A DNA stretch of 64,000 nt from Stentor roeselii (taxonomy: Eukaryota > Ciliophora > Heterotrichea > Heterotrichida > Stentoridae): NCBI GenBank assembly GCA_006503475.1, contig RSEH01000164.1, forward strand, positions 45,163-109,162, given 5' to 3'. This document shows positions 13,145-50,716 of this stretch, piece after piece (positions within the stretch are counted from its first letter, which is position 1; every line of letters begins with the position of its first letter). Made by a program: the position numbers and the translations under genes. The notes beneath the pieces are model-generated. The model was not told the DNA's origin and did no database searches. It saw only the letters and a list, made by a program, of their open reading frames with translations.

Positions 13145-15757
13145 CTAAAGAAAATCGGAATCCCAGTCACATTCGTACTCGTTGCCTGTTGTTGCTAGTG
13201 GCTCGGCTTGGTCTTCTGAAAGAGACTCGAAGAATTTACCTTCTGGGATGAACTCGGCGATCGAGTTTCGCCCGATTAGATCGTCCCAGTCTACTCCTAA
13301 AAACCATTCATGCCGTTTTATGTCGTCTGCAGTGCCTCTTTCAGTAGGGTCTTTACTCAGCAGTTTTTCAATAATACCTGAAGGTTTCTGAGACTCTTTG
13401 ATAAAAATAGGGTATTTATGCGAATCATTCAGTATAATCTGATAAATCTCATAAGGGTCTTCTTTTCCATATCCAAAAGGAACGACTCCAAAAAGCAGTT
13501 CAAAAATTGTGATACCCAAGCTCCAAAGGTCAGCTGAAAACGAGTACCCAAGGCCAATGATGACTTCAGGAGCGATATAAAAAGGATTTCCCAATATAGT
13601 AAAAGTGCGATTTTCTATCTTTTTCGCATTGGACAAGTCAGCCATTACAGGGTATCCAAAAGCATCAATAATGAAAGACTCTGGAGTGATTTCTCTATGA
13701 ACGATGCTAGAATTATGTAAATATTCAAGACTCAGCAAAATCGCTGAGGCGAAAAACTTGGCTTGTTTCATGGTCAAAGCTGTTTTACTTTCAAGGTGAT
13801 TGGAAAGTGAAGGTCCTTGAAGGTACTCACTGAGAAAGTAAACATTTTCCTTGTCTGTCAAAGTCTTTATCAAAGTGCTGATGAAAGGAAAGCTGCAGTC
13901 AAGGTGGATCTTTTTTTCTCTTTTTAACCTTTCGAGGAGGTCATATCGATCAATATCTTGTTTTTTGATAGCTTTCAAGGAATAGTTTAAATTGTTTTTC
14001 TGGTTCAAGACAATGAAAATCTCGGAAAAATTTCCTTCACCGATTTTTTTTAATATTTTCAAGTCTTTTAATTCAGCATCTTTTTCTTGCATCGCGATTT
14101 TTTGTTTGAGGTAAAACAGAAACTTTTCATTGAGAAGACTGAGAAAAACTTCTTTTTTAATCACCCAACACTCGCTTTTTTCTAAACTTTTCGCAGAAGC
14201 CGCTCGTTTTTCATTGAATAAAAAAGCTCGTTCTCCGAAGTAGTCATCTTTTTTTAATGAAGTTAAAGTCAAACCGTTTTTTTCTATTTGAATCGAGCCA
14301 CTTTTAACGATATAAAAGTAGTCAGCATCGTTTCCTTCTTGAAAAACAAGTTCATTCTCTTCAAAGGTCCTGATTTCAACCATTCTAGAGAGTTCCTCCA
14401 GTTTATTTTCAGGAATGTAAGTTAAAAATAGAATTTTTGACATGTTTTTCAAGACTCTGTTACTTTCTAAGGTGTTTTGAAGAGGTGAAGCGAGTTCTTT
14501 TTCTAAGTCATTTCTTGAAATTTTGCATAAAATGCACTCAGAGCTATTCAAAGAAAGGTCATCATTTAAAAATTCTTGACTTTTGATAGTATCAAAAACT
14601 TTATAAATCACTGAAGAGTCCACTTCACTCACCTGTCCCCAAAGTACTAAATAAATGAACTTTGAAGGATAAATCTTGAATCTTCCTTCAAAGTTTTCAG
14701 TTGAAAACAAAGGTAGAAGGCGAGTGACCTGCAAGTTAGTAAGTTCTTTTAACACAGAGTCCCTAGCGAAGGCGATGCGAATAGCATTAAAATACAAAAA
14801 TCCCTGAAGACGACTACCGAAGACCTTAATCAATGTATTTTCAGTGAAACATAAAATTTTACATTTACTTGCTGCGAAGGCTGAGGCATTTCTAAGGACA
14901 TTGTAAATCATTGAGATCTCTCCAAAGTACTCTCCTTTTCCCAGGGTGTTAATTTTTTCAGTACCTTTCATAATATTGACCTTTCCCGTTTTCACTATAT
15001 ACATAATCGAGTTCAAGTCTCCAGTCATAAAAATTCTCTCATTTTCTTCAAAAGACTCAGTAATCGCTGAGGCTAATAAAATCTCGAGCTTCGCTCTCGG
15101 AAGTGCTTTAAAAACTTCTAAACTCTGAAGAAATTCCTCGTTTTCTTTATATTTCAAACGAATTGATTCACTTATTGTTTCTTTAAACACATCTCGACCA
15201 AGTCCCCAAAGTCTTGTGCGATTCGCAGCTTTTGCAGTAGCCCTTCTTCCTGAGTTGTGAATCAAGGCAAGTTCTCCGAAGCAGTCTCCTCTTTCCATGA
15301 ATTTGACGTGTTTCTGATTCACTATTATTTCGACTGACCCACTCGCAATAATGAAAAAGTTAAACCCGGGGTCAGCCTGTTTGAATATAAATTCGTTTTT
15401 TTGAACAAGGTAGTAGTTCATTTGCATGATGATTTCTTTTAATGTAGTATCTTCTAGATCTTTGAAGAGAAAATGACTTCGAAGGGTTTGTTTTAATTCT
15501 GAGAGTTCTTCAGGGGATGGAGACTTTTTTAAGATTTCACTTGTGAGGCAGTCTACGTCGCATTCGTGACGCTCGAAGGCATTTTGTTGTGGAAGAGTTG
15601 TGTGGGATAGACGAGCTTTTGCACCGATTGTCATTCCTTTCTTTAGCTCACTTAAAATACTCAAACGGATTTTTCGTTGGTCGTCTATGATTGCCAGAGA
15701 TGAGGAAAAACCGTGGATTTTTACTTGTTTTTGCTTTTTTGATGGAATGCAGCCCAT
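13145..15757 (-). CDS. PKG-like protein with four cNMP-binding-type domains and a probable pseudokinase domain
   Basis: 870 residues. The N-terminus MGCIPSKK fits N-myristoylation plus palmitoylation. Cyclic-nucleotide-binding domains lie at about 96-210 (phosphate-binding cassette FGELALIHNSGRRATA), 215-320 (FGEISMIYNVLRNASA), 330-440 (no cassette, degenerate) and 445-560 (FGERAFLFNEKRAASA). The order A-B-degenerate C-D matches apicomplexan PKG. The kinase domain (about 570-825) keeps a Gly-rich loop (GEGNFSE) and the ATP-anchoring Lys (YSLKAIKK). The catalytic loop reads HREITPES (687-694) where active AGC kinases have HRDxKPEN: Asp is Glu, Lys is Thr and Asn is Ser. DFG reads DLS. The C-terminal tail keeps a WDxxF-type end. 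The likely role is a membrane-tethered cyclic-nucleotide sensor with little or no phosphotransfer. Compare the gene at 48071. Confidence 0.9.
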   Translation of the reverse strand: MGCIPSKKQKQVKIHGFSSSLAIIDDQRKIRLSILSELKKGMTIGAKARLSHTTLPQQNAFERHECDVDCLTSEILKKSPSPEELSELKQTLRSHFLFKDLEDTTLKEIIMQMNYYLVQKNEFIFKQADPGFNFFIIASGSVEIIVNQKHVKFMERGDCFGELALIHNSGRRATAKAANRTRLWGLGRDVFKETISESIRLKYKENEEFLQSLEVFKALPRAKLEILLASAITESFEENERIFMTGDLNSIMYIVKTGKVNIMKGTEKINTLGKGEYFGEISMIYNVLRNASAFAASKCKILCFTENTLIKVFGSRLQGFLYFNAIRIAFARDSVLKELTNLQVTRLLPLFSTENFEGRFKIYPSKFIYLVLWGQVSEVDSSVIYKVFDTIKSQEFLNDDLSLNSSECILCKISRNDLEKELASPLQNTLESNRVLKNMSKILFLTYIPENKLEELSRMVEIRTFEENELVFQEGNDADYFYIVKSGSIQIEKNGLTLTSLKKDDYFGERAFLFNEKRAASAKSLEKSECWVIKKEVFLSLLNEKFLFYLKQKIAMQEKDAELKDLKILKKIGEGNFSEIFIVLNQKNNLNYSLKAIKKQDIDRYDLLERLKREKKIHLDCSFPFISTLIKTLTDKENVYFLSEYLQGPSLSNHLESKTALTMKQAKFFASAILLSLEYLHNSSIVHREITPESFIIDAFGYPVMADLSNAKKIENRTFTILGNPFYIAPEVIIGLGYSFSADLWSLGITIFELLFGVVPFGYGKEDPYEIYQIILNDSHKYPIFIKESQKPSGIIEKLLSKDPTERGTADDIKRHEWFLGVDWDDLIGRNSIAEFIPEGKFFESLSEDQAEPLATTGNEYECDWDSDFL

Positions 15758-20163: not shown

Positions 20164-23100
20164 TTATGGAATACTATTGAGCCTATCAACATACATGTAA
20201 TGAATACGGCTTGAGTCTTGATACAATATCGCAAGTTTAGTATATGCATTTTTCAAATAAGAGTTATCATCAATATGTTCTGACTGGTACATTTTTTCAA
20301 TCTCTATGTAATATTGTGCAGCATCACTAAAATCATTCATGCGAAATAGCAGATCAGCTAAATTTGTAAGAGACTTGATGATTTTTATTGGATAACTATG
20401 CAAGCTTCTTCTAATGATCAAGCAATTCAAATAATTTACCTTTGATTGCTGATAATCATTTTCAATTTCATAAGCCTTAGCAAGAATTTTGTGAACTTTT
20501 GACTTATGATAATCAAGATCTTCTTCACTAATATTGTTGTTGACGTTGTTGATGTTGTTGATATGTTCAATCAAATAATTAATACAAAGACTGGACAAGA
20601 AATATTCAAGATAAATTTTTCCGACATAGTAATGATTAGTAAGTTTTTTCACATTTGAAAAGCCATTTTTTTCCTTATTTTCTGAAAATTTTCTTGAGTA
20701 TTTCATAGAGACCTCATCATTTATTTGATTATTTTTCAACTGGCTGATGCAATTAAAAATAGACTTGCTGAAATACTCTCTTGAGCTTTCATCATCTTCT
20801 GTATTACTTTTCACCTGTTTGACACAATCGAAAATAAAGAGATGATTATATAAGTAAATTTCATCACATATCTCGAAACATTTCTCAAAAAAGGTCAAAT
20901 TTGATTCATATAAACTTTTGATGCCTAAATAATAAAGAATTTCTAAAAGTTTTTCACTTTCCTCCGAGCTAAAGAAGTGCCAGGATTCTTTTATAATAAT
21001 TCGAAGATGATCTCTGCAACACTCAACATGATCCATCAATTTTTGTACATTAGAATCAGATTGATTGATTTTTTCTTCTTCATACACACAAAAGGAGAGT
21101 TCAAGATAGATGAAAAGTTTAGAAAAGCTATAATCATGATTTTTCGGTAGAGACTCTAAACTATCTCCCATGTACTTTTTAAATTGGTCTAAATAATTCA
21201 AGTTCAGGTAAAGTTTAGCGTACTTATAATAAAGTTCTGCAAGATTTTTATTGAAAAATGCGAAATTTTTTCCATTAAAATCAAAAAAACTGAGTCCATA
21301 AAGCGCTTCTAAGACTAAGTAAGATTTTCCATAGTCCTGAAAAACTTCACTGTAATCTTGGCCTCCAGTGCTTCGAATAATCTCAAGATTTAAATCTCCT
21401 AAACTTTCATTAACCCGAGCATTGAGTACATGGCCAGGGTACATCTCCTTTACTTCTAAAAGTCTCTGCTTTAAATTATCAATATTTAAATAAGATCTTG
21501 TAATTCTACAGAAATCTACCTGACTGCAAAGTAGTTCAATCATTCTAGAATCTTTTAATTCAACAGTAGTCTCAAGGCGTCTTTTACAGTCATTAAAAAA
21601 AGCCTTTGCCATGGCATGATCTTGAAGTAACAGGTAAATTTTTCCTAAATAAAGAGGAACTAATGCAAGTTCTGGGTTAAATTCATATAAACCTAACCTG
21701 CTAAACTCAAAACACGACCAAAGAAGTGTCAAAGAATCTTGGAACCTTTCTTGGTTATATTTGCATATCGCTAGGTATAATTGAACCAAAACATAATAAA
21801 AATTTTCTTTTGTGAAAATCTGTTCAAATCGTTTACTGCACTCATTAAAGTAAAACTCCGCTTGGTCTAAATTTCCAACTTCAAGGAAATATTTCCCTGC
21901 TTCGAAACAAGCGAGATTATTATGAAAGTTAAAATGAGAATATAAAGGTTCTCGATTGTCGAAGTAAATTCTGAGAGATTCGAAGCAGTTTTTATAGTTT
22001 CCTGAATTTCTCCAGAAAATTGAATATTTTAGGGTAAATTTTTTTTGGTGGTTTTTTGAATAGGATATATTTGTGAAACACCAGGCGAAATAAGGGCAGT
22101 TTTCAGAATATATTCCTTGATCGAGCTTTAGAATTGCTATGTCTAAGATGATCTTGAATAATTTTTGTGGGGATTCAGGATTTTGCTGATAAATTTGAAG
22201 AGACTCGAAAATTCCATCAAAAGAGATTTGCTGTCTTTTTTCTTTGTATAAAAAATACTGGGATAATCGAATTTGCAGTTGGAGGAAGTCGTAATTTCGA
22301 ATATTCCTTGATTTTATAACTTTTTTTGTATGATCGATAAAAGGTTTAACTAATTCCCACGAGGCTTCATCATAAAAATCTTTAACTCGAATTTTTTTCT
22401 TTAAGTAATTTACCAAATGTGAAAAAATTTCTTGTATCTGTATTTTTTCAGCATTTTTAAAAACGTTTTTATCATATTTAAAGAAATTTTCATTTTCTTT
22501 TACCAAAAAAGTCATCAAAACAAAGTTTTTAGCTTTTTGCCAGTCGTTAGGATCTCGAATTCTGCAGAAGACATCTTTAGCGAGTTCTTTAGGAATATTA
22601 TCATTGTCGCAAAAACTCAAAATTTTCACTAAAACTTTTTCGCTTTCACCCATTAAACTAATGATTTCATCGATATTTGATTGATAAAATTTATCAGTAA
22701 TTGTATGGTTAAATAGAAATTCATAGTAATTTGATAATGAGAGTGATTGCGAGACTATCTTTGATATTGAAATTTTTATCCATTGAGGATTATTTTTGCA
22801 TAGATGTGCAATATTTAATATATCCTCGTTGTTTGACATGTCGAAGTTCATTAGAGAAGCCCTTATTAATAACTCCGATATTTGATCATCTAACCCTCTT
22901 ACTTTTAAAGATCTTTCATTGGGTGATTCTCTGTAGTTTTCTGAAAATATTAGTAAGTATTTTATGTTCATCTTTGACAATATAAAGCGATTTATTATGT
23001 CTTTATTTTGAAGGTTATCGAATATTAAAAGGATTTTTAAATCTGTTCTATTCAAATGGTCAATTAAAATCTCCTCTGCTCGGCTGAAATTTTCTGATGT

Positions 23101-24660
23101 GATGTTTAAAAGTCGGATGCAGTTTAACACTTGCCATGCAAGTTCTTCACTTTCATAAGAATCAAACACCAAAATTGAGCTATAGTTTTTTGAGTATCTT
23201 TCAATGTATTTGTATGCAACTGAGCTTTTACCAACTCCAGGCTCTCCATGAATAAATAATATATTTCCATTCATATTCGTAAAAATTGTTTCTATTTCAG
23301 AGACATAATTTAGTTCAAATATTTCATAAGAATCAATACTTTTACTTTTATTGATTAGCATTTGTTGGTTGATCGTTTTCTTTAAGTGTTTATTTGAGCA
23401 TTTGATTATCAGACTAAATTTTATTCGATTTTTTTGAATAGTAACTTTTGCATCGTTTGATATATTTTTTAATTCGCCTTCTGATATTTTGTGATCAGGA
23501 ATTATGTATTTATTAATTAATTCTGATATATCAGCATCAGAGTTTAGGTGTAAGGAGATAAGAAAGTAAAATATGAAACTTTTTTTTCTAGTCGGAGAAT
23601 CTTCAAATTGTTTATCAATACCATAAGCACATTCAGATAAAAATCCATTTCCAAGAATCCTCATAGATCTAATCATCAAATTACAAACCATAATAAAAAC
23701 ATTATCATCAATCTTATGATCCTTATCAAAAAGAATATATCTAAAAAACTTTTTTTTATTTTCCACTAATTCCTCAATTTCATCATAAAACTGTATCAAA
23801 TTCTGTAAATAAGGAAAATTTTTAAGATTTTTTATTTTCTTATAAATAAAATTTTTCATAATTTCAGCAGATTGATTACTTTCATCTCCAACTCGAAGTA
23901 AAACTTTAAAAACCTTAACATTTTTATTCATCAACTTTTGCCACCAATTCTTTAAATTCGACTTAACCATTTCTAAAAAAATATCAAGTTCAGCAACGAC
24001 CCCAATATCAGTAATACTTTCATTTTTTTCCAAATTCAATTTGATATCTTTCACCTTCTCCGGAACCCCATCAATAAAAACTTTATCAACTCGAAACCCA
24101 GCATCTTCAGCTAAGAAAGAAAAGAAGTAATATTTATTAAGCAAAGAAAAAACTTCAAGTCTCTTCAAGCAAAGAAGAGGATGATTCAGGAAAATCGGTT
24201 CTTCGAAGTTTTCAAAAAGTTTCTTGAAAATATCGCCTGGGTGAAAAGTGAGCCTTGGATGAATTTTACTAAGTTCAAGCAAGTCATTTGAGTAGAAGTT
24301 GAAATTTTGCATTTGTTCTGAGACTCGGTTGACAAGGTTCATGCAAGGTCGATGGTCTGGATTGTTTTTGTTGTGATCTTTGATTGATTCTCGAACCAAA
24401 TGCATTGATGCTGGAATTCCTCCACCTTTTAAACCTTTTTGGAAGAAGATTCTTTGGTTTTTGAAATCGACTTTAAAATAAGGGGTTGATGAGATAGGAT
24501 TTGATTTTATTCTGGAGTAGTCGGATAGAGACATTCCTGGAAGGATTGTGGTGAATGATCTTGATGATGTTAGGCTTTTTATTGAAGCTTTTACTTGGTC
24601 TTCGGATGGGGTTAGAGTCATTTTGTAATCAAAGGCTTTTTCGATGTCGACAAACTCCAT
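20164..24660 (-). CDS. STAND-class NLR-like P-loop NTPase with C-terminal TPRs
   Basis: 1,498 residues in one exon. Residues 1-450 are mostly helical and unrecognised. A nucleotide-binding domain begins near 460: Walker A GEPGVGKSS at 472-480 after hydrophobic NILFIH, and Walker B KILLIFDN near 542-549. Helical and winged-helix-like segments typical of STAND/NB-ARC proteins follow. From about 790 to the end are repeated TPR-type helix pairs (FEAGKYFLEVGNLDQAEFYF; YNQERFQDSLTLLWSCFEF; YLGKIYLLLQDHAMAKAFF; LADLLFRMNDFSDAAQYYIE). NTPase followed by superstructure repeats is the plan of NLR-type sensors, in which ligand binding to the repeats triggers NTP-driven oligomerisation. The N-terminal effector is not a recognised death, CARD, TIR or nuclease domain. 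It lies near three ADP-ribosyltransferase-like genes on the same strand. Confidence 0.85.
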   Translation of the reverse strand: MEFVDIEKAFDYKMTLTPSEDQVKASIKSLTSSRSFTTILPGMSLSDYSRIKSNPISSTPYFKVDFKNQRIFFQKGLKGGGIPASMHLVRESIKDHNKNNPDHRPCMNLVNRVSEQMQNFNFYSNDLLELSKIHPRLTFHPGDIFKKLFENFEEPIFLNHPLLCLKRLEVFSLLNKYYFFSFLAEDAGFRVDKVFIDGVPEKVKDIKLNLEKNESITDIGVVAELDIFLEMVKSNLKNWWQKLMNKNVKVFKVLLRVGDESNQSAEIMKNFIYKKIKNLKNFPYLQNLIQFYDEIEELVENKKKFFRYILFDKDHKIDDNVFIMVCNLMIRSMRILGNGFLSECAYGIDKQFEDSPTRKKSFIFYFLISLHLNSDADISELINKYIIPDHKISEGELKNISNDAKVTIQKNRIKFSLIIKCSNKHLKKTINQQMLINKSKSIDSYEIFELNYVSEIETIFTNMNGNILFIHGEPGVGKSSVAYKYIERYSKNYSSILVFDSYESEELAWQVLNCIRLLNITSENFSRAEEILIDHLNRTDLKILLIFDNLQNKDIINRFILSKMNIKYLLIFSENYRESPNERSLKVRGLDDQISELLIRASLMNFDMSNNEDILNIAHLCKNNPQWIKISISKIVSQSLSLSNYYEFLFNHTITDKFYQSNIDEIISLMGESEKVLVKILSFCDNDNIPKELAKDVFCRIRDPNDWQKAKNFVLMTFLVKENENFFKYDKNVFKNAEKIQIQEIFSHLVNYLKKKIRVKDFYDEASWELVKPFIDHTKKVIKSRNIRNYDFLQLQIRLSQYFLYKEKRQQISFDGIFESLQIYQQNPESPQKLFKIILDIAILKLDQGIYSENCPYFAWCFTNISYSKNHQKKFTLKYSIFWRNSGNYKNCFESLRIYFDNREPLYSHFNFHNNLACFEAGKYFLEVGNLDQAEFYFNECSKRFEQIFTKENFYYVLVQLYLAICKYNQERFQDSLTLLWSCFEFSRLGLYEFNPELALVPLYLGKIYLLLQDHAMAKAFFNDCKRRLETTVELKDSRMIELLCSQVDFCRITRSYLNIDNLKQRLLEVKEMYPGHVLNARVNESLGDLNLEIIRSTGGQDYSEVFQDYGKSYLVLEALYGLSFFDFNGKNFAFFNKNLAELYYKYAKLYLNLNYLDQFKKYMGDSLESLPKNHDYSFSKLFIYLELSFCVYEEEKINQSDSNVQKLMDHVECCRDHLRIIIKESWHFFSSEESEKLLEILYYLGIKSLYESNLTFFEKCFEICDEIYLYNHLFIFDCVKQVKSNTEDDESSREYFSKSIFNCISQLKNNQINDEVSMKYSRKFSENKEKNGFSNVKKLTNHYYVGKIYLEYFLSSLCINYLIEHINNINNVNNNISEEDLDYHKSKVHKILAKAYEIENDYQQSKVNYLNCLIIRRSLHSYPIKIIKSLTNLADLLFRMNDFSDAAQYYIEIEKMYQSEHIDDNSYLKNAYTKLAILYQDSSRIHYMYVDRLNSIP

Positions 24661-25746: not shown

Positions 25747-26562
25747 TCACTTGGTAGACTTCTTAAACGGGTAGTCATTATGATGAGTCTCAGGCCCTTT
25801 CACATCATGAATCTTGGTATTATCAAAATTTTCTCTATTTTTCTTGACTTCAGGTCTAACACTAGTATTATGTGATTCTGCCTCTTTCGCCAATCCAGAG
25901 TGTCCACAAGACCTCTGCATTCTGCAGGCCACAATAAAAAACAAAAGAGTGCAAAATCCTAGCCCTGCTAAAACAGCAATAGCAATCGAAGGGCCGACTT
26001 CAGCACAAAGTTCAGGCAAGTCTCCATTGGTTGGAAAGTCATCACAAGAGCCAAATTTTGTATTAGTCAACGCCAAGAACACAGCGATTGCTACAACATG
26101 GCAAATTAAACTGATAGCAGCAAACAAGTAGGCTAATGACAGTCCTGTTCCTTTCGCCCAATATAAAATCATCATAAAAATCCAAAGAATGATTGAAAAG
26201 CCTGCCCCGCTTTCAATGCCAATGAAAATTTTTCCAGCTTTGTCAAGTCCTTTGAACATCTTGCACAAAGAATCAGCTCGATCGACAAGAATGTATTCTA
26301 AGTCATCAGGTCCATAGGTTTCTTTCAATAAATCGTAAATATCACAGTAATCGTCTTTCGAGTCTTCGTAGTTGTCGTCTTCTGGCTCTGAGTATTCTAG
26401 TAAGCCACCTTCAAATGTGCTGCTTTTACTTAGGTCTACAGAAACCCAGTCATTGATGATCAAAGAAGCCAACATTGCTCCGATCAACAAGAAGTTGAGT
26501 ATAATAAAGAAAATCCAACAACATCTGTAGGAAATTCCCATACAGTTGGCATTGCTTGACAT
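25747..26562 (-). CDS. Four-transmembrane (claudin/tetraspan-like) protein
   Basis: 271 residues. Four hydrophobic segments are visible: about 14-36 (CCWIFFIILNFLLIGAMLAS), 117-140 (FSIILWIFMMILYW), 142-166 (LSLAYLFAAISLICHVVAIA) and 192-215 (IAIAVLAGLGFCTLLFFIVA). A ~70-residue acidic loop with two Cys follows the first segment. The ~55-residue C-terminal tail is hydrophilic. The topology resembles claudin/tetraspan-type proteins, but no signature motif is present. Likely a surface or endomembrane protein. The stop is TGA. Confidence 0.75.
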   Translation of the reverse strand: MSSNANCMGISYRCCWIFFIILNFLLIGAMLASLIINDWVSVDLSKSSTFEGGLLEYSEPEDDNYEDSKDDYCDIYDLLKETYGPDDLEYILVDRADSLCKMFKGLDKAGKIFIGIESGAGFSIILWIFMMILYWAKGTGLSLAYLFAAISLICHVVAIAVFLALTNTKFGSCDDFPTNGDLPELCAEVGPSIAIAVLAGLGFCTLLFFIVACRMQRSCGHSGLAKEAESHNTSVRPEVKKNRENFDNTKIHDVKGPETHHNDYPFKKSTK

Positions 26563-27488: not shown

Positions 27489-28841
27489 CTAATCAAAATC
27501 AATTTTATCCTTAAAACAAATAAAATCAACAATATCATAATAACTATCAGTCACTTTCAAAGCATAATAATCCAAATTATAATTCCTAATTTTTTCCCTA
27601 AGTTTTCCAACAGAATTAGTATAAATCATAATCTCACAATAAAAAAACAAATTTAGCACATCACTACAAAACCTAATCCCAGCTTCATCATGATCAAAGG
27701 CACCCGATTCACATGCATTTAATATAATCCTAAAATTTCCCAAATTATTCAATTTTTTTTGTCCCCATTCCGAAACCAAATAAGCCCGCCCTGCTTCATT
27801 AGAAGTTTTTAAAATAAACCTAATCCTGGGGTTCCAAGCTGAAGCAACATCCAAGTAAGGCTTAACCATTGAAGGTTCATTGAAAATATTTTCATCGACC
27901 CATAAAACATTGAGTTTTGATATTCCAAGTTCGATTTGCCGTAGATGAATATGAGGTTTATTATCATGATACTCAAGCTTGAGGACTAGGAAATGGCTTA
28001 AAGGTAATAAAATGATTTCTTTTTGATCAGGATAGTAGGAAAATTTAGTTATTTCTCTACCTGAAATAGAAAATATATGAAAAACTGCTGTGCGAGTTAT
28101 GAAGTCAGGATGGGCCACTTCGCCGATTGTGCAACTGCTGAATTGGTTCCAACATACTACTTTTCCTTGGGTGTAGTCTATTAATTCATCTGCTGTTAAG
28201 TTTAAGCACCTGGTGCATGTGCCGAAGTAGATAGGGAGATAGTGAAGGGCTTTTAACATGTAACTGTTTAGAAGGTGGTTGTTTTTTAAGATCGGCTTTG
28301 ATTGGCTACTGTTCAGGAAGCCATCTCTCATGTCGTATACCATTGATCTGTTATTGTAAAAACTGAATCTTCCTGTATAGCATCGAATTGCACAAACAAA
28401 CATTGTAGCTATATTATCTTGTAGACCTTTTTGAGTAAAGTGTGATTTCATCATATTGGTATCCATCTTAACCTCATCTATAAGATTACTCAATTTTTCA
28501 TTTCGTAACATTGTATTAAAATCATTCAAGCTCGTAATCTCATCAAAAAATCTATTTAAAAGACTATCATCAAAAAGATTTATATATTTCTCATCTTTAG
28601 TCCATATCAAATTGGACAGGGCAGTCTCACTATGAGGGTTATTTTTATCTGAGCAAAAAATATGACCATTAACTTCACCAAGCCTCATATAATAGTACCC
28701 ATGATCCATAATATTTACCAATCCAAGAGGATTCTGTAATTCATTTCTAATGACTTCTTGGATATTGCGAATAGTTCTGTAAGGATTTATACTGACAGAT
28801 TGATACATGCTGGGATCATCAACATAAAAGAAAAAGTTCAT
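27489..28841 (-). CDS. ADP-ribosyltransferase-like protein (ARTC fold) with receiver-like C-terminal domain, copy 1
   Basis: 450 residues; the most divergent of three tandem paralogues. Residues about 140-290 match the arginine-ART fold in order: AIRCYTG, then R211 in PIYFGTCTR, then the Ser motif at 235-237 (FSSC), then the Glu motif at 273-275 (QKE, followed by IILLPLSHFLV). Classic arginine-specific enzymes have E-x-E here; this copy has Gln in the first position while its two paralogues keep E-x-E. Residues about 300-445 start NVLWVDENIF and resemble a Rossmann or response-regulator receiver fold, shared with the other copies. The family transfers ADP-ribose from NAD+ to protein side chains. 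Target unknown. No signal peptide is evident, so action is probably intracellular. Confidence 0.75.
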   Translation of the reverse strand: MNFFFYVDDPSMYQSVSINPYRTIRNIQEVIRNELQNPLGLVNIMDHGYYYMRLGEVNGHIFCSDKNNPHSETALSNLIWTKDEKYINLFDDSLLNRFFDEITSLNDFNTMLRNEKLSNLIDEVKMDTNMMKSHFTQKGLQDNIATMFVCAIRCYTGRFSFYNNRSMVYDMRDGFLNSSQSKPILKNNHLLNSYMLKALHYLPIYFGTCTRCLNLTADELIDYTQGKVVCWNQFSSCTIGEVAHPDFITRTAVFHIFSISGREITKFSYYPDQKEIILLPLSHFLVLKLEYHDNKPHIHLRQIELGISKLNVLWVDENIFNEPSMVKPYLDVASAWNPRIRFILKTSNEAGRAYLVSEWGQKKLNNLGNFRIILNACESGAFDHDEAGIRFCSDVLNLFFYCEIMIYTNSVGKLREKIRNYNLDYYALKVTDSYYDIVDFICFKDKIDFD

Positions 28842-29037
28842 TTATCTGGATTTATAGACAATTTTTAAAGTAAATGGCACAATAAATTATGTTTATTTGT
28901 TCTCATGTAAATTATCTTCCTCTTAGTCAGTCGATAGGTAAACTATAAAGATTTTCTCCAAGTCAAATCATCTCAACCAATAACCAATCTTCTTATCTCC
29001 AATCTCTATTAACCTAAGTAAATAATCATATAAATAT

Positions 29038-30312
29038 TCATTTAAAAGTAATAAAATTGCAAATATCTTCACAAGAATCACCAACTTTAATACCCGAATC
29101 ATCCATTCCATAAGCAATCAGCGACTCATGAACATTCTGAGTATTCTCTGTAGTATAAATCATTTTCTTGCAATTAAAATTCAAACTAATAGCCTGAAAG
29201 CAAAGCCAAACACCCGAATCCTTTAAATTTTCATTACTCGGCACGAAATAATTAACAATGATCCTAAAATTTCCAGAAAACTCTTTTTTCTTGATGCCCC
29301 ATTGAGACTGCAAATAAACAAGAGCAGATTCAAAAGAAGTTTTAAATATAAACCGAATTCTAGGATTAACAGTTGAAGCGTATTCGACATAGTTCTTAAC
29401 ATTAGAAGGTGAGTTAAAAATAGCTTGATCCACCCACAAGACATTCTTTTCAGAAATTCCAAGTTCAATCTGCCTTAAATAAATAAAATCTCTTGGATTT
29501 TTTTTCTCGATTTTCACGACAAGGAACTGACTGAAAGGTAAAAAAATTACTTCATTTTCATTTTTATATTTTGAAACCTGAGAAATTAATCTTCCACTAA
29601 CTGAGTAAATGATTAGAACTGTGTTTCTATTTTCGAAATATTCCAATGGGGACTCTCCAATATTGCTACTGCTGAATTGGAACCATGTCAATATGCAGCC
29701 TGGTTGATAGTCCTCGAGTTCTGATGGGGTCAAGTTCAGGCATCGGGTGCATGGACCGAAATAAATTGGCAGGTATTGAAGACCTCTTAACATGTAACTG
29801 TTGACTATAAAGAAATTTTCATTGATTACTTCAGAGTCGGTGCTATTTATGAAAAATTCTTTTATGTCGTAGGCTAGAGTTCGATTGTTTTTCATACTTT
29901 GCCCTCCAGTGTAAAAGCGGATGGCGCATATGAACATTTTTTTGTCGTTTTCTGTTAATCCTTGAAAAGAAAAGACACTATTTACAGTTGAATTTGTATT
30001 GATATATAATAAAGATTCATTATCGTTTAAGTTCTGCAAGACTATCTTAAATTCATTCATTGAGCACTGGGCTGAATAGAATTTGTCAAGAAGCTTATCA
30101 GATACAAAGTTATAATATTTCCGATGTATCGGCCAGATGAAAGAGATCAGGGAGTATTCACAGTCAGAGTCAGAAAATGTAAAAGAACCACAGTCGTTTA
30201 TGTCGACAAAACCGAATCTTAAGTAATAAAAACCATGGTCCATCAATCGGGTCATTCTGCCCTCTAAGTCTTCACGTATGTCTTCCATGCTTCTTTCAAT
30301 AGTGCTATACAT
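29038..30312 (-). CDS. ADP-ribosyltransferase-like protein with receiver-like C-terminal domain, copy 2
   Basis: 424 residues, paralogous over its full length to the genes at 27489 and 30490. The ART-type catalytic positions all look intact: AIRFYTG (130-136), R190 in PIYFGPCTR, FSSS at 213-216, and E252-N-E254 in NENEVIFLPFSQFLV. The C-terminal part begins KNVLWVDQAIF and has the same alternating strand/helix pattern as its paralogues (RIRFIFKTSFESALVYL, FRIIVN, CKKMIYTT). E-x-E is the signature associated with arginine-specific transferases. No signal peptide or membrane helix seen. About 200 bp separates it from copy 1 and about 180 bp from copy 3. Confidence 0.77.
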   Translation of the reverse strand: MYSTIERSMEDIREDLEGRMTRLMDHGFYYLRFGFVDINDCGSFTFSDSDCEYSLISFIWPIHRKYYNFVSDKLLDKFYSAQCSMNEFKIVLQNLNDNESLLYINTNSTVNSVFSFQGLTENDKKMFICAIRFYTGGQSMKNNRTLAYDIKEFFINSTDSEVINENFFIVNSYMLRGLQYLPIYFGPCTRCLNLTPSELEDYQPGCILTWFQFSSSNIGESPLEYFENRNTVLIIYSVSGRLISQVSKYKNENEVIFLPFSQFLVVKIEKKNPRDFIYLRQIELGISEKNVLWVDQAIFNSPSNVKNYVEYASTVNPRIRFIFKTSFESALVYLQSQWGIKKKEFSGNFRIIVNYFVPSNENLKDSGVWLCFQAISLNFNCKKMIYTTENTQNVHESLIAYGMDDSGIKVGDSCEDICNFITFK

Positions 30313-30489
30313 CTATTTATTATACATTTTTTTATTTTAAATAGATTTTTCTATTGTCTATAATTTCCAAATGGCTCATTTCAACAAATTCTTGAAATTC
30401 CTGAGATAATAAACCTTGATTATAATCTAGTTCTCAAGAATTTCTCCCATCAATTTCTTTTCAAACCACTTAATCCATCAGATTATCAA

Positions 30490-31863
30490 TCAACTACTAA
30501 AACAGATAAATTTTCCGATTTCTCTTGCATCAGAAACAACTTGTATGCCAAAGTTGACCAGCTGATAATGATTAAGCCACCTCCAAGTCTCTACCATGTT
30601 ACTTGAATAAATCATAATCTTGCAATTAAATCCTAACCTCAAAGCATATGAACAAAAAACATAGCATGCCTCATCATTACTCAAAAAGTAGCTGCTAATA
30701 ATAATCCTAAATTTCTGAAGATTTTCCTTTTTCCTCTCACCCCAGGCACTACTTAAAAAAGCGAGAGCAGATTCACAAGTGGTCTTTAAAATAAACCTGG
30801 TCCTGGGGGTAACAACAGAAGAATACTCAAGGAAATCTTTAACAGTCGACTCAGGATAAAAAATATTTTCATCTACCCACAAGACATTTTTTTCTGAAAT
30901 GCCCATTTCGACCTGTCTCAAAAAAATATAAGGTTTGTCTTCTCGATATTCAAATTTGAGGACTAGAAACTGACTAAAAGGTAAAAAAACTACTTCTTGC
31001 TCTAATTTGTACTTTGAGAAGGTGGAAATTTTTCTTCCAGATACTGAGTAAATGACGAAGACAGCGTTTCGGTTTAGGAAGTCAGGATGAGGGACTTCTC
31101 CGATTGTACTGCTGCTGAATTGAAACCAAGTCACTATGCTTCCGGCCAGGTAACTGCCCAGTTCTTCATCGGACAAGTAAAGACATCTTGTGCAGGTCCC
31201 GAAATGGATCGGAAGGCAATGAAGGGCTTTTAAGAAGTAACTGTTTATTAAAGTCACGTCGTTGTTTATTGAATGGGACGTGGAATTGCTTAGGAAGGAA
31301 GATTTTATGTCGTGGGCACAGATTCGGTTATTCACCCAGCTGGTGCTTCCTGTGTAGTTCCGGATTGCCAGGATCATCATTTTACTATCTTCTTCAGTCA
31401 CGCCCTTGGATTTTAAAATTTCTATCAGGTTAGGGTTTTCTTGTAAGAAAATCATGGATTCAGTGTCTTGTAAATTGATAAGTGAGTTTTGAAAGTCGAC
31501 CAAGTTACTTCGGGTGATGAAATAGATGTCTAAGAGACGATCAGAAAAAAGATTTACATACTTTACGTCAATTGGCCATGTATAACTAGCGAAAAAACTT
31601 TCGCAGTTCGGATCATTTATTGAATACAACGGAAGATGTTTGTTGTCAAGCTTTCCTATCAGTAGGTAATAGTAAGAATGATCCATTAGATTTAAGCTGC
31701 TCTTATCATTTATATCATCTTCGATTTGAGATTGAGTTTTTCTAATTGTTTGATAATCGAAAGCATTAGAACTATTGAGATCTTGAGGCCCTCTTTCGAT
31801 GATGTGCTGTTGATTAGGGTCCATAATCGATTGATTAATATTGATGCTCATTTGGTTAAACAT
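30490..31863 (-). CDS. ADP-ribosyltransferase-like protein with receiver-like C-terminal domain, copy 3
   Basis: 457 residues. Residues 58-115 are a conserved N-terminal region with MDHSYYYLLIG and an aromatic ASYTWPIDVKYVNLFSD core found in all three paralogues. The ART region shows AIRNYTG (166-172), R226 in PIHFGTCTR, FSSS at 249-252, and E288-Q-E290 in LEQEVVFLPFSQF, so the R-S-E catalytic set appears complete. Residues about 325-455 (KNVLWVDENIF onward) are the receiver-like domain. The role inferred from the fold is NAD+-dependent mono-ADP-ribosylation. The C-terminal domain lacks a clear phospho-acceptor triad, so it may be a binding module rather than a phosphorelay receiver. Confidence 0.77.
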   Translation of the reverse strand: MFNQMSININQSIMDPNQQHIIERGPQDLNSSNAFDYQTIRKTQSQIEDDINDKSSLNLMDHSYYYLLIGKLDNKHLPLYSINDPNCESFFASYTWPIDVKYVNLFSDRLLDIYFITRSNLVDFQNSLINLQDTESMIFLQENPNLIEILKSKGVTEEDSKMMILAIRNYTGSTSWVNNRICAHDIKSSFLSNSTSHSINNDVTLINSYFLKALHCLPIHFGTCTRCLYLSDEELGSYLAGSIVTWFQFSSSTIGEVPHPDFLNRNAVFVIYSVSGRKISTFSKYKLEQEVVFLPFSQFLVLKFEYREDKPYIFLRQVEMGISEKNVLWVDENIFYPESTVKDFLEYSSVVTPRTRFILKTTCESALAFLSSAWGERKKENLQKFRIIISSYFLSNDEACYVFCSYALRLGFNCKIMIYSSNMVETWRWLNHYQLVNFGIQVVSDAREIGKFICFSS

Positions 31864-45579: not shown

Positions 45580-46017
45580 TTAAAAGGAATAATAGTACTG
45601 CCAGCACGACAATACAATCAAATTTCCATTGATGTCTTGGTTACTGAGTACATACTCCTTGATGTACTGTCCGTTTTGATCTCCAGAGAATGTATGAGTT
45701 AAGAAGGAATTTTGCTGTCCTCGATAGTAAGTTGTCGATAAATTCGTCTGGGTGTAGTGCCACTCTAGCCTGTTATAGTTTGTCCCGATTGACAGGAACT
45801 GGACAAACACAGTCGAGCTGAAAATCCCAGTCATGTTGACAGCCATGCTGCTGTTGTTCTCTGTGGGCCATGGAGACACATCAAAATAAGTGACGTTAAA
45901 GACAGGGTTCGGCACGCAAGACTTACCCATTTGCTGATTCAAGTCTTCTGGAACTTCTAAGAAATTCCCTGCATTGGATAAAGAAATGATGAACAAGATT
46001 AGGATCAGACTTTTCAT
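45580..46017 (-). CDS. Small secreted glycoprotein, possible ML-type lipid-binding fold, paralogue A
   Basis: 145 residues from the ATG at 46015-46017. The N-terminus (MKSLILILFIISLSNAG) is a signal peptide. The mature part has Cys near both ends and several NxS/T sites (NVT, NSS, NMT, NLS). The pattern CVPNPVFNVTYFDVSPWP then alternating hydrophobic strands resembles MD-2-related lipid-recognition (ML) domains, though the usual PC motif is PW here. It shares about half its residues with the gene at 46742. An in-frame GTG lies three codons upstream in both genes. Likely secreted, vacuolar or phagosomal. Confidence 0.7.
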   Translation of the reverse strand: MKSLILILFIISLSNAGNFLEVPEDLNQQMGKSCVPNPVFNVTYFDVSPWPTENNSSMAVNMTGIFSSTVFVQFLSIGTNYNRLEWHYTQTNLSTTYYRGQQNSFLTHTFSGDQNGQYIKEYVLSNQDINGNLIVLSCWQYYYSF

Positions 46018-46741: not shown

Positions 46742-47179
46742 TTAAATTCCGTATTCAAACTGCCAACACGCCAAATGAATATAATTTCCGTTTCTATCCT
46801 GGTTGCTTAGAACTACTTCTTTAATATACTGTCCATTCTGTTCACCCGAGTAAGTATGGGCAATATAAGTCTCAGCCTGTCCTTGAGTGTAATTCGCTGA
46901 GATATTAGTATGGGTGTAATGCCATTGTTGCCTGTTAAAGTTAGTCCCAATCGCAAAGAACTGAACAAAGACATTCCTGCTAAAGGCGCCTGTGATGTTC
47001 AAGGCAAGACTGCTGTTCTTCACTGGAGGCCAAGGCGTCACATCAAATGAACTCACGTTGAAAACCGGGTTAGGGATACACTGATGACCCACCTGCTGTT
47101 GTAGCTCAGGTTGGACTTCTAGGAAAGTCCCAGCAATAGCTACAGAAACAATCAAGAAAACTGGAAGAAGACCTTTCAT
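46742..47179 (-). CDS. Small secreted glycoprotein, possible ML-type lipid-binding fold, paralogue B
   Basis: 145 residues from the ATG at 47177-47179, the same length as paralogue A. Signal peptide MKGLLPVFLIVSVAIAG. Conserved blocks with A: CIPNPVFNVSSFDVTPWP, FVQFFAIGTNFNRQQWHYT, SGEQNGQYIKEVVLSNQDRN. N-glycosylation sites and the terminal Cys positions are kept. The two are a local duplication. Function is uncertain beyond a secreted or lumenal beta-rich protein. Confidence 0.72.
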   Translation of the reverse strand: MKGLLPVFLIVSVAIAGTFLEVQPELQQQVGHQCIPNPVFNVSSFDVTPWPPVKNSSLALNITGAFSRNVFVQFFAIGTNFNRQQWHYTHTNISANYTQGQAETYIAHTYSGEQNGQYIKEVVLSNQDRNGNYIHLACWQFEYGI

Positions 47180-48070: not shown

Positions 48071-50716
48071 ATGGGCGCAGCATGTGTAATGTGTACAAAA
48101 AAATCCTCAAAAGGAAATCCCCGAGTCTATATAAACGAAAAAAACTACAACAACCGTAAAACCAGACAAAAAATCAAAATAGACGAAATCTTAGATGAAG
48201 AAGGCGATGCTCCATACGTATCACCTGAAGACAAGGCGAAAACAAGAGACGATATCGACTTTTTAAAGAAATCCTTATCAAAAAGTTTAGAATTTAACAA
48301 GTTGACAGAAGACCAGCTTGACTCAGTAGTGAGTCACATGAGGTACTACACCTTCCAGTCAGATGAAATCGTCTGCAAGCAGGGCTCTGTCGGGTCCGTC
48401 TTTTTCGTAGTCGCTCGAGGCCGTCTTGTAGTCCTAGCTGACGGCAAACAGGTCAACGAGTTAACACCTTCTCACTGTTTCGGCGAAGTGGCTCTTTTGC
48501 ATGAGACTAAAAGAACAGCGACAGTGAAAACGACTGAAAGTACTCAATTGTGGGGAGTGGACAGAAAGACCTTTAGAAGTACTTTAGACCATTTAAATGC
48601 GAATGAATATGCGGAAAATAAGAATTTGATTATGAGTATTCCTTCTTTCAAGATACTCAATAATATTCAGTTGGAGTCTCTCATCAGCTCTGTTGGAATC
48701 TCGGTTTATGGACCTGGGCAGGTCATTGTCACTCAGGGAGAGGTCGGCGACTTACTCTTTATCATAAAGCAAGGGTCGGTCACCTGCACAGAGGACGGCC
48801 GTATCACTAGAACTATGGAAAAAGGAGAATACTTCGGTGAAAAAGCTCTTTTTTCTCATAATTCTCTAAGGTCTGCATCAGTCACTGCCAGTGAGTACGT
48901 CAAGTGCCTCACCATTGGAAGAAGTACATTGACTGACCTTCTTGGTTCCTCTATTCAGGTCTTGGTTCATAAAAACTCTGCACGAATCGCATTTGATAAA
49001 AATTGTTATTTGCAGAAACTCACCAGGACTCAATATGAAAAACTTTTATGTTGTCTTCAGATTCATGAGAAAAAAAGTGGAGAAATCGTTATTCATAAAG
49101 GGACGGCGAAAAATGAACAGATTGTTATTATTTTGAAAGGAGAACTCGTTGATAATGAAGGATATGTTTCGTTTGGGGAAAGTGATATTATTGGAATTGA
49201 GGATATTATTCAGGAGGGTGATGAGCAGTTTTTTTTGGATTACTTTGCCAAAGGGCAGGTGGATGTTGGCTTGATTGATAAGAAAAAATTTTTTGAAGCT
49301 ATTGGAGGGGACTACTCACGAGCAACCGCTTACAACGAAACGATAAAAGCTTTAAAGCATTTCGAAATCTTCCGAAACCTAACCGAAGACCAACTCGAGA
49401 CCTTATCCCAAGTATTAAAACCAGCAACATTCACAAAAGATTTTTTAATTTTCACTCAAAATGATCAAGGAACTTCAATGTTCTTAATAATCTCAGGCCA
49501 AGTCGATGTATTAGTGAACGGCACAGTAGTAAGAACAATAAGCAAAAACGGTTATTTCGGCGAGCGTTCTCTTTTAACAGGCGACATCCGCTCAGCGACA
49601 GCCAAATGTTTAGCAGAAGTCTCCTGCTGGGTGTTGTTCAAGGCCGACTTCGACACAGTCTTCGACAAGAAGCTGAAAGAATTGCTTTACAAGCGAATAG
49701 AACTTCAAGATGACAGCATCAAACTCACAGACCTTCAAATAATAAAGCCAATTGGACAAGGTACTTACGGCAACGTCTTTTTAGTCGCTCATAAGTCAAG
49801 AAAGACTCTTTTCGCGTTAAAAACAGTCAGTAAACAGAAGATCCAGGCTTACGAGATACAAGAAAACCTTCTTCATGAGAGAAAAAGTCTTTTACAAGTC
49901 GATCACATGTTTATCTTAAAACTCGTCAAAACCTTTCGAGATGAGAACCGTCTTTACTTTTTAAGTGAATATATCAACGGCCTCACCATCAGCGACATTC
50001 AAAAGAAACTTAAAAAGTTTTCACTTCCTGAATGCAAGTTTTACATGGCGTGCATTTTACTGATGTTGGAATATCTTCATGAACAGAATATTGTTTATAG
50101 AGGACTTAATCCTGATAATTTAATGATCGATATTGAAGGGTATCCGAAACTTATTGACTTTGGAACTGCGAAGATTATAAAAGGCAGGACTTATACTATT
50201 GTGAATACTGCTTATCATTATATTGCTCCTGAAATCATCGCTGGACATGGGTATAACTTGAGTTCTGATTATTGGAGTGCTGGGATTCTGCTTTATGAAC
50301 TTTTGTATGGAGAGTTGCCTTTTGGAGAAGAGGAAAATGATGCGTATTCTATTTTTGAAAGTATTTTGCAGTGCAAACTTAGGTTTCCTACGGATTCTGA
50401 TAATAAGGATAAGGTGAAGGATTTGCTTGGGCAACTTATTTGTAAAAATTCTACTTCTAGGCTTAATGGAGGACTTGAAGCTTTGAAGGGACATCCTTGG
50501 TTTATTAGTATCAACTGGGAAAAACTTATTAGAAAAGCGCTACCTACTTCTTATAAACCTATTTTGAAAAATATTAACAAGGAAATTGACTCGGCTTTGA
50601 AACAGAAGAAAGATATCAATGAAATCATTTCAGAAATAGAAAAAAACCAACCTAATCCCAAAAGACGAGCCTTTGATAGAGTTGCTCCGAACTGGGATGA
50701 GGAATTTAGTACATAA
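48071..50716 (+). CDS. PKG-like protein with four cNMP-binding-type domains and a probable pseudokinase domain (second copy)
   Basis: 881 residues, the same architecture as the gene at 13145 but clearly diverged. N-terminus MGAACVMC fits myristoylation plus palmitoylation. cNMP cassettes: FGEVALLHETKRTATV (A), FGEKALFSHNSLRSASV (B), a third domain without cassette (C), and FGERSLLTGDIRSATA (D). The kinase domain has an intact Gly-rich loop (GQGTYGNVF), ATP-Lys (ALKTVSKQK) and DFG (D696). The catalytic loop reads YRGLNPDN (676-683) instead of YRDLKPEN: catalytic Asp is Gly and Lys is Asn. Phosphotransfer should be severely impaired. The C-terminus ends NWDEEF, the WDxxF-type tail of cyclic-nucleotide-dependent kinases. 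Likely a membrane-anchored cyclic-nucleotide sensor or scaffold. Confidence 0.92.
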   Translation: MGAACVMCTKKSSKGNPRVYINEKNYNNRKTRQKIKIDEILDEEGDAPYVSPEDKAKTRDDIDFLKKSLSKSLEFNKLTEDQLDSVVSHMRYYTFQSDEIVCKQGSVGSVFFVVARGRLVVLADGKQVNELTPSHCFGEVALLHETKRTATVKTTESTQLWGVDRKTFRSTLDHLNANEYAENKNLIMSIPSFKILNNIQLESLISSVGISVYGPGQVIVTQGEVGDLLFIIKQGSVTCTEDGRITRTMEKGEYFGEKALFSHNSLRSASVTASEYVKCLTIGRSTLTDLLGSSIQVLVHKNSARIAFDKNCYLQKLTRTQYEKLLCCLQIHEKKSGEIVIHKGTAKNEQIVIILKGELVDNEGYVSFGESDIIGIEDIIQEGDEQFFLDYFAKGQVDVGLIDKKKFFEAIGGDYSRATAYNETIKALKHFEIFRNLTEDQLETLSQVLKPATFTKDFLIFTQNDQGTSMFLIISGQVDVLVNGTVVRTISKNGYFGERSLLTGDIRSATAKCLAEVSCWVLFKADFDTVFDKKLKELLYKRIELQDDSIKLTDLQIIKPIGQGTYGNVFLVAHKSRKTLFALKTVSKQKIQAYEIQENLLHERKSLLQVDHMFILKLVKTFRDENRLYFLSEYINGLTISDIQKKLKKFSLPECKFYMACILLMLEYLHEQNIVYRGLNPDNLMIDIEGYPKLIDFGTAKIIKGRTYTIVNTAYHYIAPEIIAGHGYNLSSDYWSAGILLYELLYGELPFGEEENDAYSIFESILQCKLRFPTDSDNKDKVKDLLGQLICKNSTSRLNGGLEALKGHPWFISINWEKLIRKALPTSYKPILKNINKEIDSALKQKKDINEIISEIEKNQPNPKRRAFDRVAPNWDEEFST

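What the first reader, a model, noticed from the sequence alone, without database searches (positions are those of the whole stretch)
27489..31863. Tandem family of three ARTC-like ADP-ribosyltransferases fused to a receiver-like domain
Three adjacent minus-strand paralogues share an ART-fold core with the R, S and E motifs in order, plus a shared N-terminal region and a C-terminal domain starting NVLWVD. An ART domain joined to a Rossmann/receiver-like module is an unusual combination, and the family is expanded in tandem next to an NLR-like gene. It may be a ciliate-specific signalling or defence enzyme family.
Basis: partly seen in the sequence, partly recalled or inferred. Interest (0 to 1): 0.8.

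Follow-up and report, generated by a model that had tools for sequence, protein, structure and literature searches.

The report
ADP-ribosyltransferases with a bacterial-type receiver tail
Three neighbouring genes, in a genome that looks like a ciliate's, encode enzymes predicted to use NAD to tag proteins; each carries a tail related to a switch-type domain that some bacteria fuse to TIR domains, a class that often cuts NAD, so a similar pairing of switch and NAD enzyme may recur here with a different enzyme.

Summary
Three minus-strand ORFs (27489-28841, 29038-30312, 30490-31863) are diverged, selected tandem paralogues. All pass Pfam's cut-off for ART (PF01129) and keep R, S and E motifs in order; the first has Q-x-E instead of E-x-E. 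The C-terminal domain has no Pfam match. Profile comparison places it with a bacterial receiver clade (LWVDDxPxNN...ISDMGR), also when the motif used to find that clade is removed; the window copies reach this only as a three-row profile or through paralogues, not singly, and the reverse search was weak. In bacteria the clade is repeatedly fused, C-terminally, to TIR or DUF4062 domains. I found 11 ART-tail loci in the genome: five keep the receiver's phospho-acceptor Asp; the window copies have N, N and S there. They are best read as ADP-ribosyltransferases, probably cytosolic, with an aspartate-less receiver as regulatory module. The NLR-like gene is not the immediate neighbour and shows no linkage elsewhere. 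The ART fold was not obtained in a model, no activity was tested, and defence remains a guess. The genome also encodes hybrid histidine kinases and Hpt proteins, so Asp-bearing paralogues could be phosphorelay outputs (untested). New variant of a known kind.

The parts
27489..28841 (-). ART-receiver gene 1 (P0001, 450 aa)
   Evidence: ORF; PF01129 E 6.8e-09
27924..28391 (-). ART core of P0001; R211, S236, Q273-x-E275 (Q-x-E variant)
27492..27914 (-). C-terminal receiver-related domain of P0001; D316 E317; phospho-acceptor position is N375
29038..30312 (-). ART-receiver gene 2 (P0002, 424 aa)
   Evidence: ORF; PF01129 E 6.7e-08
29458..29925 (-). ART core of P0002; R190, S215, E252-x-E254
29041..29448 (-). 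C-terminal receiver-related domain of P0002; D295 Q296; phospho-acceptor position is N354
30490..31863 (-). ART-receiver gene 3 (P0003, 457 aa)
   Evidence: ORF; PF01129 E 2.5e-07
30901..31368 (-). ART core of P0003; R226, S251, E288-x-E290
30493..30891 (-). C-terminal receiver-related domain of P0003; D331 E332; phospho-acceptor position is S390 (S391 in the alignment, a serine either way); AlphaFold model of 145 residues has mean pLDDT 86.4
31369..31863 (-). N-terminal region of P0003 shared by the family (MDH.YYY...W.I..KY), no Pfam match; the same region in P0002 is 29926-30312 and in P0001 28392-28841

Best explanation
Each gene encodes a soluble, probably cytosolic R-S-E-type ADP-ribosyltransferase whose C-terminus is a receiver-derived regulatory module of the same clade that bacteria attach to the C-terminus of TIR and DUF4062 domains. 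The ART core binds NAD+ and transfers ADP-ribose to a protein, most likely to arginine, in the two E-x-E copies (P0002, P0003); the Q-x-E copy (P0001) has probably changed acceptor or become an NAD glycohydrolase. The tail probably controls when or where the enzyme acts, by packing on the ART core or by dimerising. In the window copies this cannot be phosphorylation of the usual Asp, because that position is N, N or S (and the second Asp of the acidic pair is E, Q or E); they act as aspartate-less receivers, held in one state or responding to another ligand or partner. Five paralogous loci elsewhere in the genome keep the Asp (three of them, C102a, C145 and C515, with ART and tail in one open frame) and could be phosphorylated by the cell's hybrid histidine kinases through its Hpt proteins. 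Shown: ART and receiver homology, motif residues, fusion, family size, the losses. Inferred: catalysis, acceptor, cytosolic location, regulation by the tail, phosphorelay input.
Against: The window tails by themselves barely reach the bacterial HMM (E 0.071, 7.9, 12; best of 3000 decoys 27), and without the motif not at all (80, 160, 500): their receiver identity rests on the three-row profile and on the paralogues. The reverse search, with the 6-row paralogue profile, found 1 of 40 bacterial genomes at E <= 0.01, although each of the 40 holds an LWVDD gene. None of the six paralogue tails matches Response_reg in Pfam, nor do the window proteins. No structural match of the tail model reaches E 0.001; the first listed is a lipase, and B12-binding, TIR and other alpha/beta folds score like the receivers. 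The full-length model is poor over the ART part (block means 25-60), so clustering of R, S and E was not shown. The bacterial clade itself does not keep the receiver Lys (K in 6, R in 10 of 75 in the column that one search aligns) and has T or S at the Thr position in 32 of 75, so phosphorylation may not be its mode at all. No expression or activity data.
Confidence: 0.6

Rival explanations
1. The ART domains of the window copies are catalytically dead or specialised as NAD+/ADP-ribose sensors, and the genes are decaying or scaffolding members of a birth-and-death family.
For: Two other family members have lost the second Glu (C102c K-S-K; C128 E-N-D), three loci have broken frames (C102b, C102c, C49), and the window copies have lost the phospho-acceptor Asp.
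Against: All three window ORFs are intact, keep R, S and the second E, and show dN below dS in the two pairs where dS can be computed.
Confidence: 0.2
2. The tail is a nucleotide- or partner-responsive switch or oligomerisation module that never used phosphorylation, also in the Asp-bearing paralogues.
For: The bacterial clade does not keep the Lys and often not the Thr; [quoted passage not shown] five of the genome's 19 receivers, four of them beside HisKA, do not match the ART tails (probability about 1 and below).
Against: The phospho-acceptor Asp is kept in 74 of 75 bacterial domains and in 5 of 11 loci of this genome, although its column was not part of the search pattern.
Confidence: 0.35
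3. The family is a defence effector of this cell, a eukaryotic counterpart of bacterial TIR-receiver proteins, in functional tie with the NLR-like gene nearby.
For: Bacterial relatives match models of anti-phage proteins (ThsB 4 of 78, QatA 3, PDC-S20 3; 25 of 55 matching models were shown) and carry TIR or DUF4062 domains; DUF4062 is reported as an antiphage NADase (PMC13174449, a preprint, abstract read).
Against: The NLR-like gene and the ART family share only the window's contig among 9 and 7 contigs; an unrelated ORF lies between them; no TIR_2 match in this genome; no infection data; 11 of 78 bacterial members match Trans_reg_C, a regulator domain.
Confidence: 0.15
4. The C-terminal domain is not receiver-related but a TIR-like or other flavodoxin-like domain.
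For: Structural matches include B12-binding and TIR domains at similar scores; no Pfam match; reverse search weak.
Against: Sequence profile link to a clade that matches Response_reg in 77 of 78 ORFs, robust to removal of the search motif.
Confidence: 0.07

Closest known systems
ARTC / PF01129 NAD:arginine ADP-ribosyltransferases (T-cell ecto-ART2; R-S-E clade)
   Same: PF01129 above cut-off; R, S and E motifs in order; family profile matches T-cell ecto-ADP-ribosyltransferase 2
   Different: No hydrophobic stretch of the kind GPI-anchored ecto-ARTs have (best 19-aa hydropathy 0.27 in the first 40 aa, 1.22 anywhere); extra N-terminal region and receiver-related tail; one copy Q-x-E
Bacterial TIR-receiver and DUF4062-receiver proteins (e.g. 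L067 Flavobacterium, L045 Prevotellaceae, L091 Planctomycetaceae)
   Same: Same receiver clade in the same C-terminal position behind a domain of a class known for NAD cleavage
   Different: Here the enzyme is an ART, not TIR; the host is a eukaryote; the tail of the window copies has lost the phospho-acceptor
Aspartate-less receiver (ALR) domains (PMC4395418)
   Same: Receiver-type domain with N or S in place of the phospho-acceptor; second residue of the acidic pair changed
   Different: The output is an ART and the domain does not match PF00072; whether that survey held such a case was not checked (abstract and section 7 read)

Membership tests
ART, R-S-E clade (PF01129) | Curated profile score | tested here: met
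   35.8, 32.6, 30.7 bits against 22.3
ART, R-S-E clade (PF01129) | R, S(T)S and E(x)E motifs in order | tested here: met
   All three have R, F-S-S and the second E; the first residue of E-x-E is Q in P0001
ART, R-S-E clade (PF01129) | ART fold with R, S, E around the nicotinamide pocket | tested here: inconclusive
   Full-length model mean pLDDT 44.5, residues 1-260 under 50
ART, R-S-E clade (PF01129) | NAD+-dependent transfer activity | not testable with these tools
   No assay
Ecto-ART (GPI-anchored ARTC1-4) | Signal peptide and C-terminal GPI signal | tested here: not met
   No strongly hydrophobic 19-aa stretch anywhere (Kyte-Doolittle at most 1.22); no signal-peptide predictor was available
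Response regulator receiver (PF00072) | Pfam match | tested here: not met
   No match in the three window proteins or in 6 of 6 paralogue tails
Response regulator receiver (PF00072) | Acidic pair, phospho-acceptor Asp, Thr/Ser, Lys | tested here: not met
   Window copies: D with E, Q, E; N, N, S for the Asp; T or S at the Thr position (MIYT, MIYT, MIYS); the Lys column cannot be placed with confidence. Five of 11 loci of the genome keep the Asp
Bacterial LWVDD/ISDMGR receiver clade | Profile homology over most of the domain | tested here: met
   for the window copies only as a three-row profile (96.0 with, 81.7 without the search motif); reverse search weak
Aspartate-less receiver (ALR) | Phospho-acceptor Asp missing | tested here: met
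   N375, N354, S390
Aspartate-less receiver (ALR) | Receiver fold | tested here: inconclusive
   Model pLDDT 86.4 with five alternating strands and helices; receivers among the best matches but none below E 0.001, other alpha/beta folds alike
NLR-linked defence gene cluster | Conserved linkage of ART genes with NLR-like genes | tested here: not met
   One shared contig among 7 and 9

The most novel reading that the evidence does not exclude
A eukaryote has rebuilt the bacterial NADase-plus-receiver defence architecture with an ADP-ribosyltransferase in place of TIR: a bacterial-type receiver acquired independently of the cell's own two-component receivers gates NAD+-dependent ADP-ribosylation, with Asp-bearing members as phosphorelay outputs and the tandem window members as phosphorylation-independent, freely evolving immune or self/non-self effectors.
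Probability: 0.15. Interest if true: 0.85.

Novelty: new variant of a known kind. Interest (0 to 1): 0.55.

Why it matters
Domain fusions often reveal what controls an enzyme. Finding one receiver clade behind TIR and DUF4062 domains in bacteria and behind an ART here suggests that this module may be a general controller of NAD-using effectors. The genome holds both Asp-bearing and Asp-less members of one family together with histidine kinases and Hpt proteins, so it would allow a direct comparison of phosphorylation-dependent and independent control of ADP-ribosylation in one eukaryotic cell.

Tried and rejected
Rejected: a link with the NLR-like gene. Rejected: origin of the tail from the cell's own two-component receivers; the five of 19 that I aligned (four beside HisKA, one on a Ser/Thr kinase) match the bacterial clade (98.9) but not the ART tails (1.1 for the six paralogue tails, 0.2 for the window tails). 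A first version of that comparison used two receivers read on the wrong strand and is void for that part; the bacterial residue counts stand.

Led nowhere: scan of genome contigs with the tail profile (39 pattern matches, none confirmed); viral contigs with the ART and tail profiles (33 and 46 pattern matches, none confirmed); plasmids with one tail (no match); PDB sequence search with the tail profile (nothing below 0.37); whole-length AlphaFold from three rows and its Foldseek search (none below 0.001); an attempt to show 15-nt introns as a sign of a heterotrich ciliate (junctions 2 at 13 nt, 3 at 15, 2 at 16, 1 at 17, 2 at 18, and single ones at 20, 21, 23 and 30; not conclusive); bacterial-type promoter scan (30 found against 27.6 in shuffles).

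Of 80 ORFs I used 75 in the profile (five shorter segments dropped), 78 in the Pfam and PADLOC scans (two over 900 aa dropped; one of those, L082, was scanned), and 71 together with 3 window rows in the structure alignment (four of the 75 left out). The reverse search used 40 of the 80 genomes. The Q-x-E interpretation (changed acceptor or glycohydrolase), the usual role of R, S and E, and the rarity of TIR-receiver fusions among ordinary response regulators are recalled knowledge or untested; I ran no background count.

Full report
Observation. Three ORFs on the minus strand, 27489-28841, 29038-30312 and 30490-31863, encode proteins of 450, 424 and 457 aa. They align over most of their length; the second and first are 47% and 44% identical to the third. 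Pfam places ART (PF01129) on each above its curated cut-off and nothing else. For six paralogous C-terminal domains Pfam lists only one chance-level match, E 0.052. Codon-position differences (for example 0.44, 0.31, 0.55) and dN 0.47-0.52 with dS 1.7 and 3.5 in two pairs (not computable in the third) show that these are selected genes, not chance frames.

Family in the genome. The window lies in a 44.4-Mb assembly of 522 contigs. Searches with P0003 and with one C-terminal domain give 11 loci on seven contigs: three on C75 (the window), three on C102, one each on C145, C515, C28, C128 and C49. In one search, 12 of 13 matches are at these loci; the thirteenth is weak (E 0.33). So the C-terminal domain was not found in this genome without the ART, at the sensitivity of a single-sequence search whose counts are lower bounds. 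PF01129 itself gives nine matches, all above cut-off. The window trio is a clade with 100/100 support; deeper branches are mostly open. C102b, C102c and C49 have broken frames, so the family turns over or these stretches are misassembled.

ART motifs. In the family alignment (motif table) the Arg of G-x-C-x-R is present in 11 of 11 rows that cover it. The Glu motif is E-x-E in eight of 11 loci (C102a, C102b, C145, C515, C28, C49, P0002, P0003), Q-x-E in P0001, and without the second Glu in two (C102c K-S-K, C128 E-N-D). A profile of six ART cores (three from the window, three paralogues) matches solved ARTs at 9.3e-07 to 1.6e-04 by sequence. A three-dimensional test failed: the whole-length model from three rows has mean pLDDT 44.5.

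Not from the cell's own receivers. The genome has 19 Response_reg matches, 15 HisKA matches (14 above cut-off) and 2 Hpt matches. By contig and place all 15 HisKA matches lie beside a receiver match. Of the six receiver or HisKA ORFs that I scanned, one is a receiver-Ser/Thr kinase-DEP-DUF547 protein, two have HisKA and receiver (one with HisKA below its cut-off), two receiver only, and one HisKA and PAS only. Five of the 19 receivers match the bacterial clade at 98.9 but the ART tails at about 1 or less. The tail therefore looks like a separate receiver lineage; horizontal acquisition from bacteria is an inference.

What the tail pairs with in bacteria. TIR_2 occurs in 12 of 78 ORFs, DUF4062 in 2, KAP NTPase in 3, Trans_reg_C in 11. 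In the eight TIR or DUF4062 ORFs that I read singly that domain is N-terminal and the receiver C-terminal, the same order as ART then tail here; DUF4062 in L100 is below its cut-off. In L082 the receiver lies instead before GAF and acylphosphatase domains. No ART is among the 25 families that match these 78 at E <= 0.01. PADLOC models of anti-phage proteins match some (ThsB 4, QatA 3, PDC-S20 3 of 78). TIR and DUF4062 as NAD-consuming classes: PMC7272460 (search listing) and PMC13174449 (abstract; no mention of receivers in its main text). I have no background rate for TIR among ordinary response regulators.

State of the switch. In this genome five of 11 loci keep the phospho-acceptor Asp (C102a, C102b, C102c, C145, C515; of these C102b and C102c have broken frames); P0001, P0002, P0003, C28, C128 and C49 have N, N, S, S, N and K. 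The window copies also have E, Q and E for the second Asp of the acidic pair. In a survey of aspartate-less receivers Asn and Ser are the commonest replacements after Glu (PMC4395418, section 7). In the bacterial clade the Asp is kept in 74 of 75, the Thr position is T or S in 32 of 75, and the conserved Lys is not kept (K 6, R 10 of 75). So even the clade is atypical, and a kinase-independent switch is a serious rival (PMC8195603, passages).

Neighbourhood. The NLR-like gene 20164-24660 is a P-loop ATPase with TPRs (AAA_22 4.8e-07, TPR_12 2.6e-09, NB-ARC only 0.021). A 271-aa ORF that looks by eye like a membrane protein (25747-26562) separates it from the ART genes. Nine further matches of the NLR-like protein in the genome lie on eight contigs without ART genes.

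Literature. Searches for ART with ciliate and Stentor (one paper, on macrodomains, passages read), two of ART, ciliates and ecto-ART (157 papers, 20 listed), TIR, receiver, ART and conflict systems (five), ART domain with receiver domain and fused (none), Thoeris with response regulator and TIR domain (one), R-S-E with protists or ciliates (four; passages of PMC3482391) and TIR with response regulator receiver (63, 8 listed) showed no description of an ART-receiver fusion in what I saw. PMC7159879 (passages) and PMC8195603 (passages) do report receivers among parts of bacterial conflict systems. Most entries I saw only as listings, and subscription journals are not held.

Verdict. Real, selected family; ART and receiver-derived tail both supported; a new domain combination as far as these searches reach. 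Mechanism inferred. Interest 0.55.

Noticed in passing
G000 C145:115920-116249 (locus L163, ORF 1-2271 minus): A receiver fused to a Ser/Thr kinase, DEP and DUF547 domain; with 15 HisKA and 2 Hpt matches this suggests a full phosphorelay in this genome.
   Followed up: partly
window 20164-24660: NLR-like P-loop ATPase with TPRs; nine further matches in the genome, two of them close together on contig C391.
   Followed up: partly
window 45580-46017 and 46742-47179: Two paralogous small proteins of 145 aa with apparent signal peptides (by eye), minus strand.
   Followed up: no
window 13145-15757 and 48071-50716: Two kinase genes whose sequences look, by eye, like cyclic-nucleotide-dependent protein kinases with several cNMP-binding repeats.
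   Followed up: no
L022:2881-5442 (minus): The C28 paralogue has a long N-terminal extension whose start resembles a C2 domain by eye; Pfam reports only ART.
   Followed up: partly
L018 (C102), L020 (C49): Paralogues C102b, C102c and C49 have broken reading frames; decaying copies or assembly errors.
   Followed up: partly
L082:3-3350 (Bradyrhizobium nitroreducens): One LWVDD receiver is joined to GAF domains and an acylphosphatase domain.
   Followed up: no
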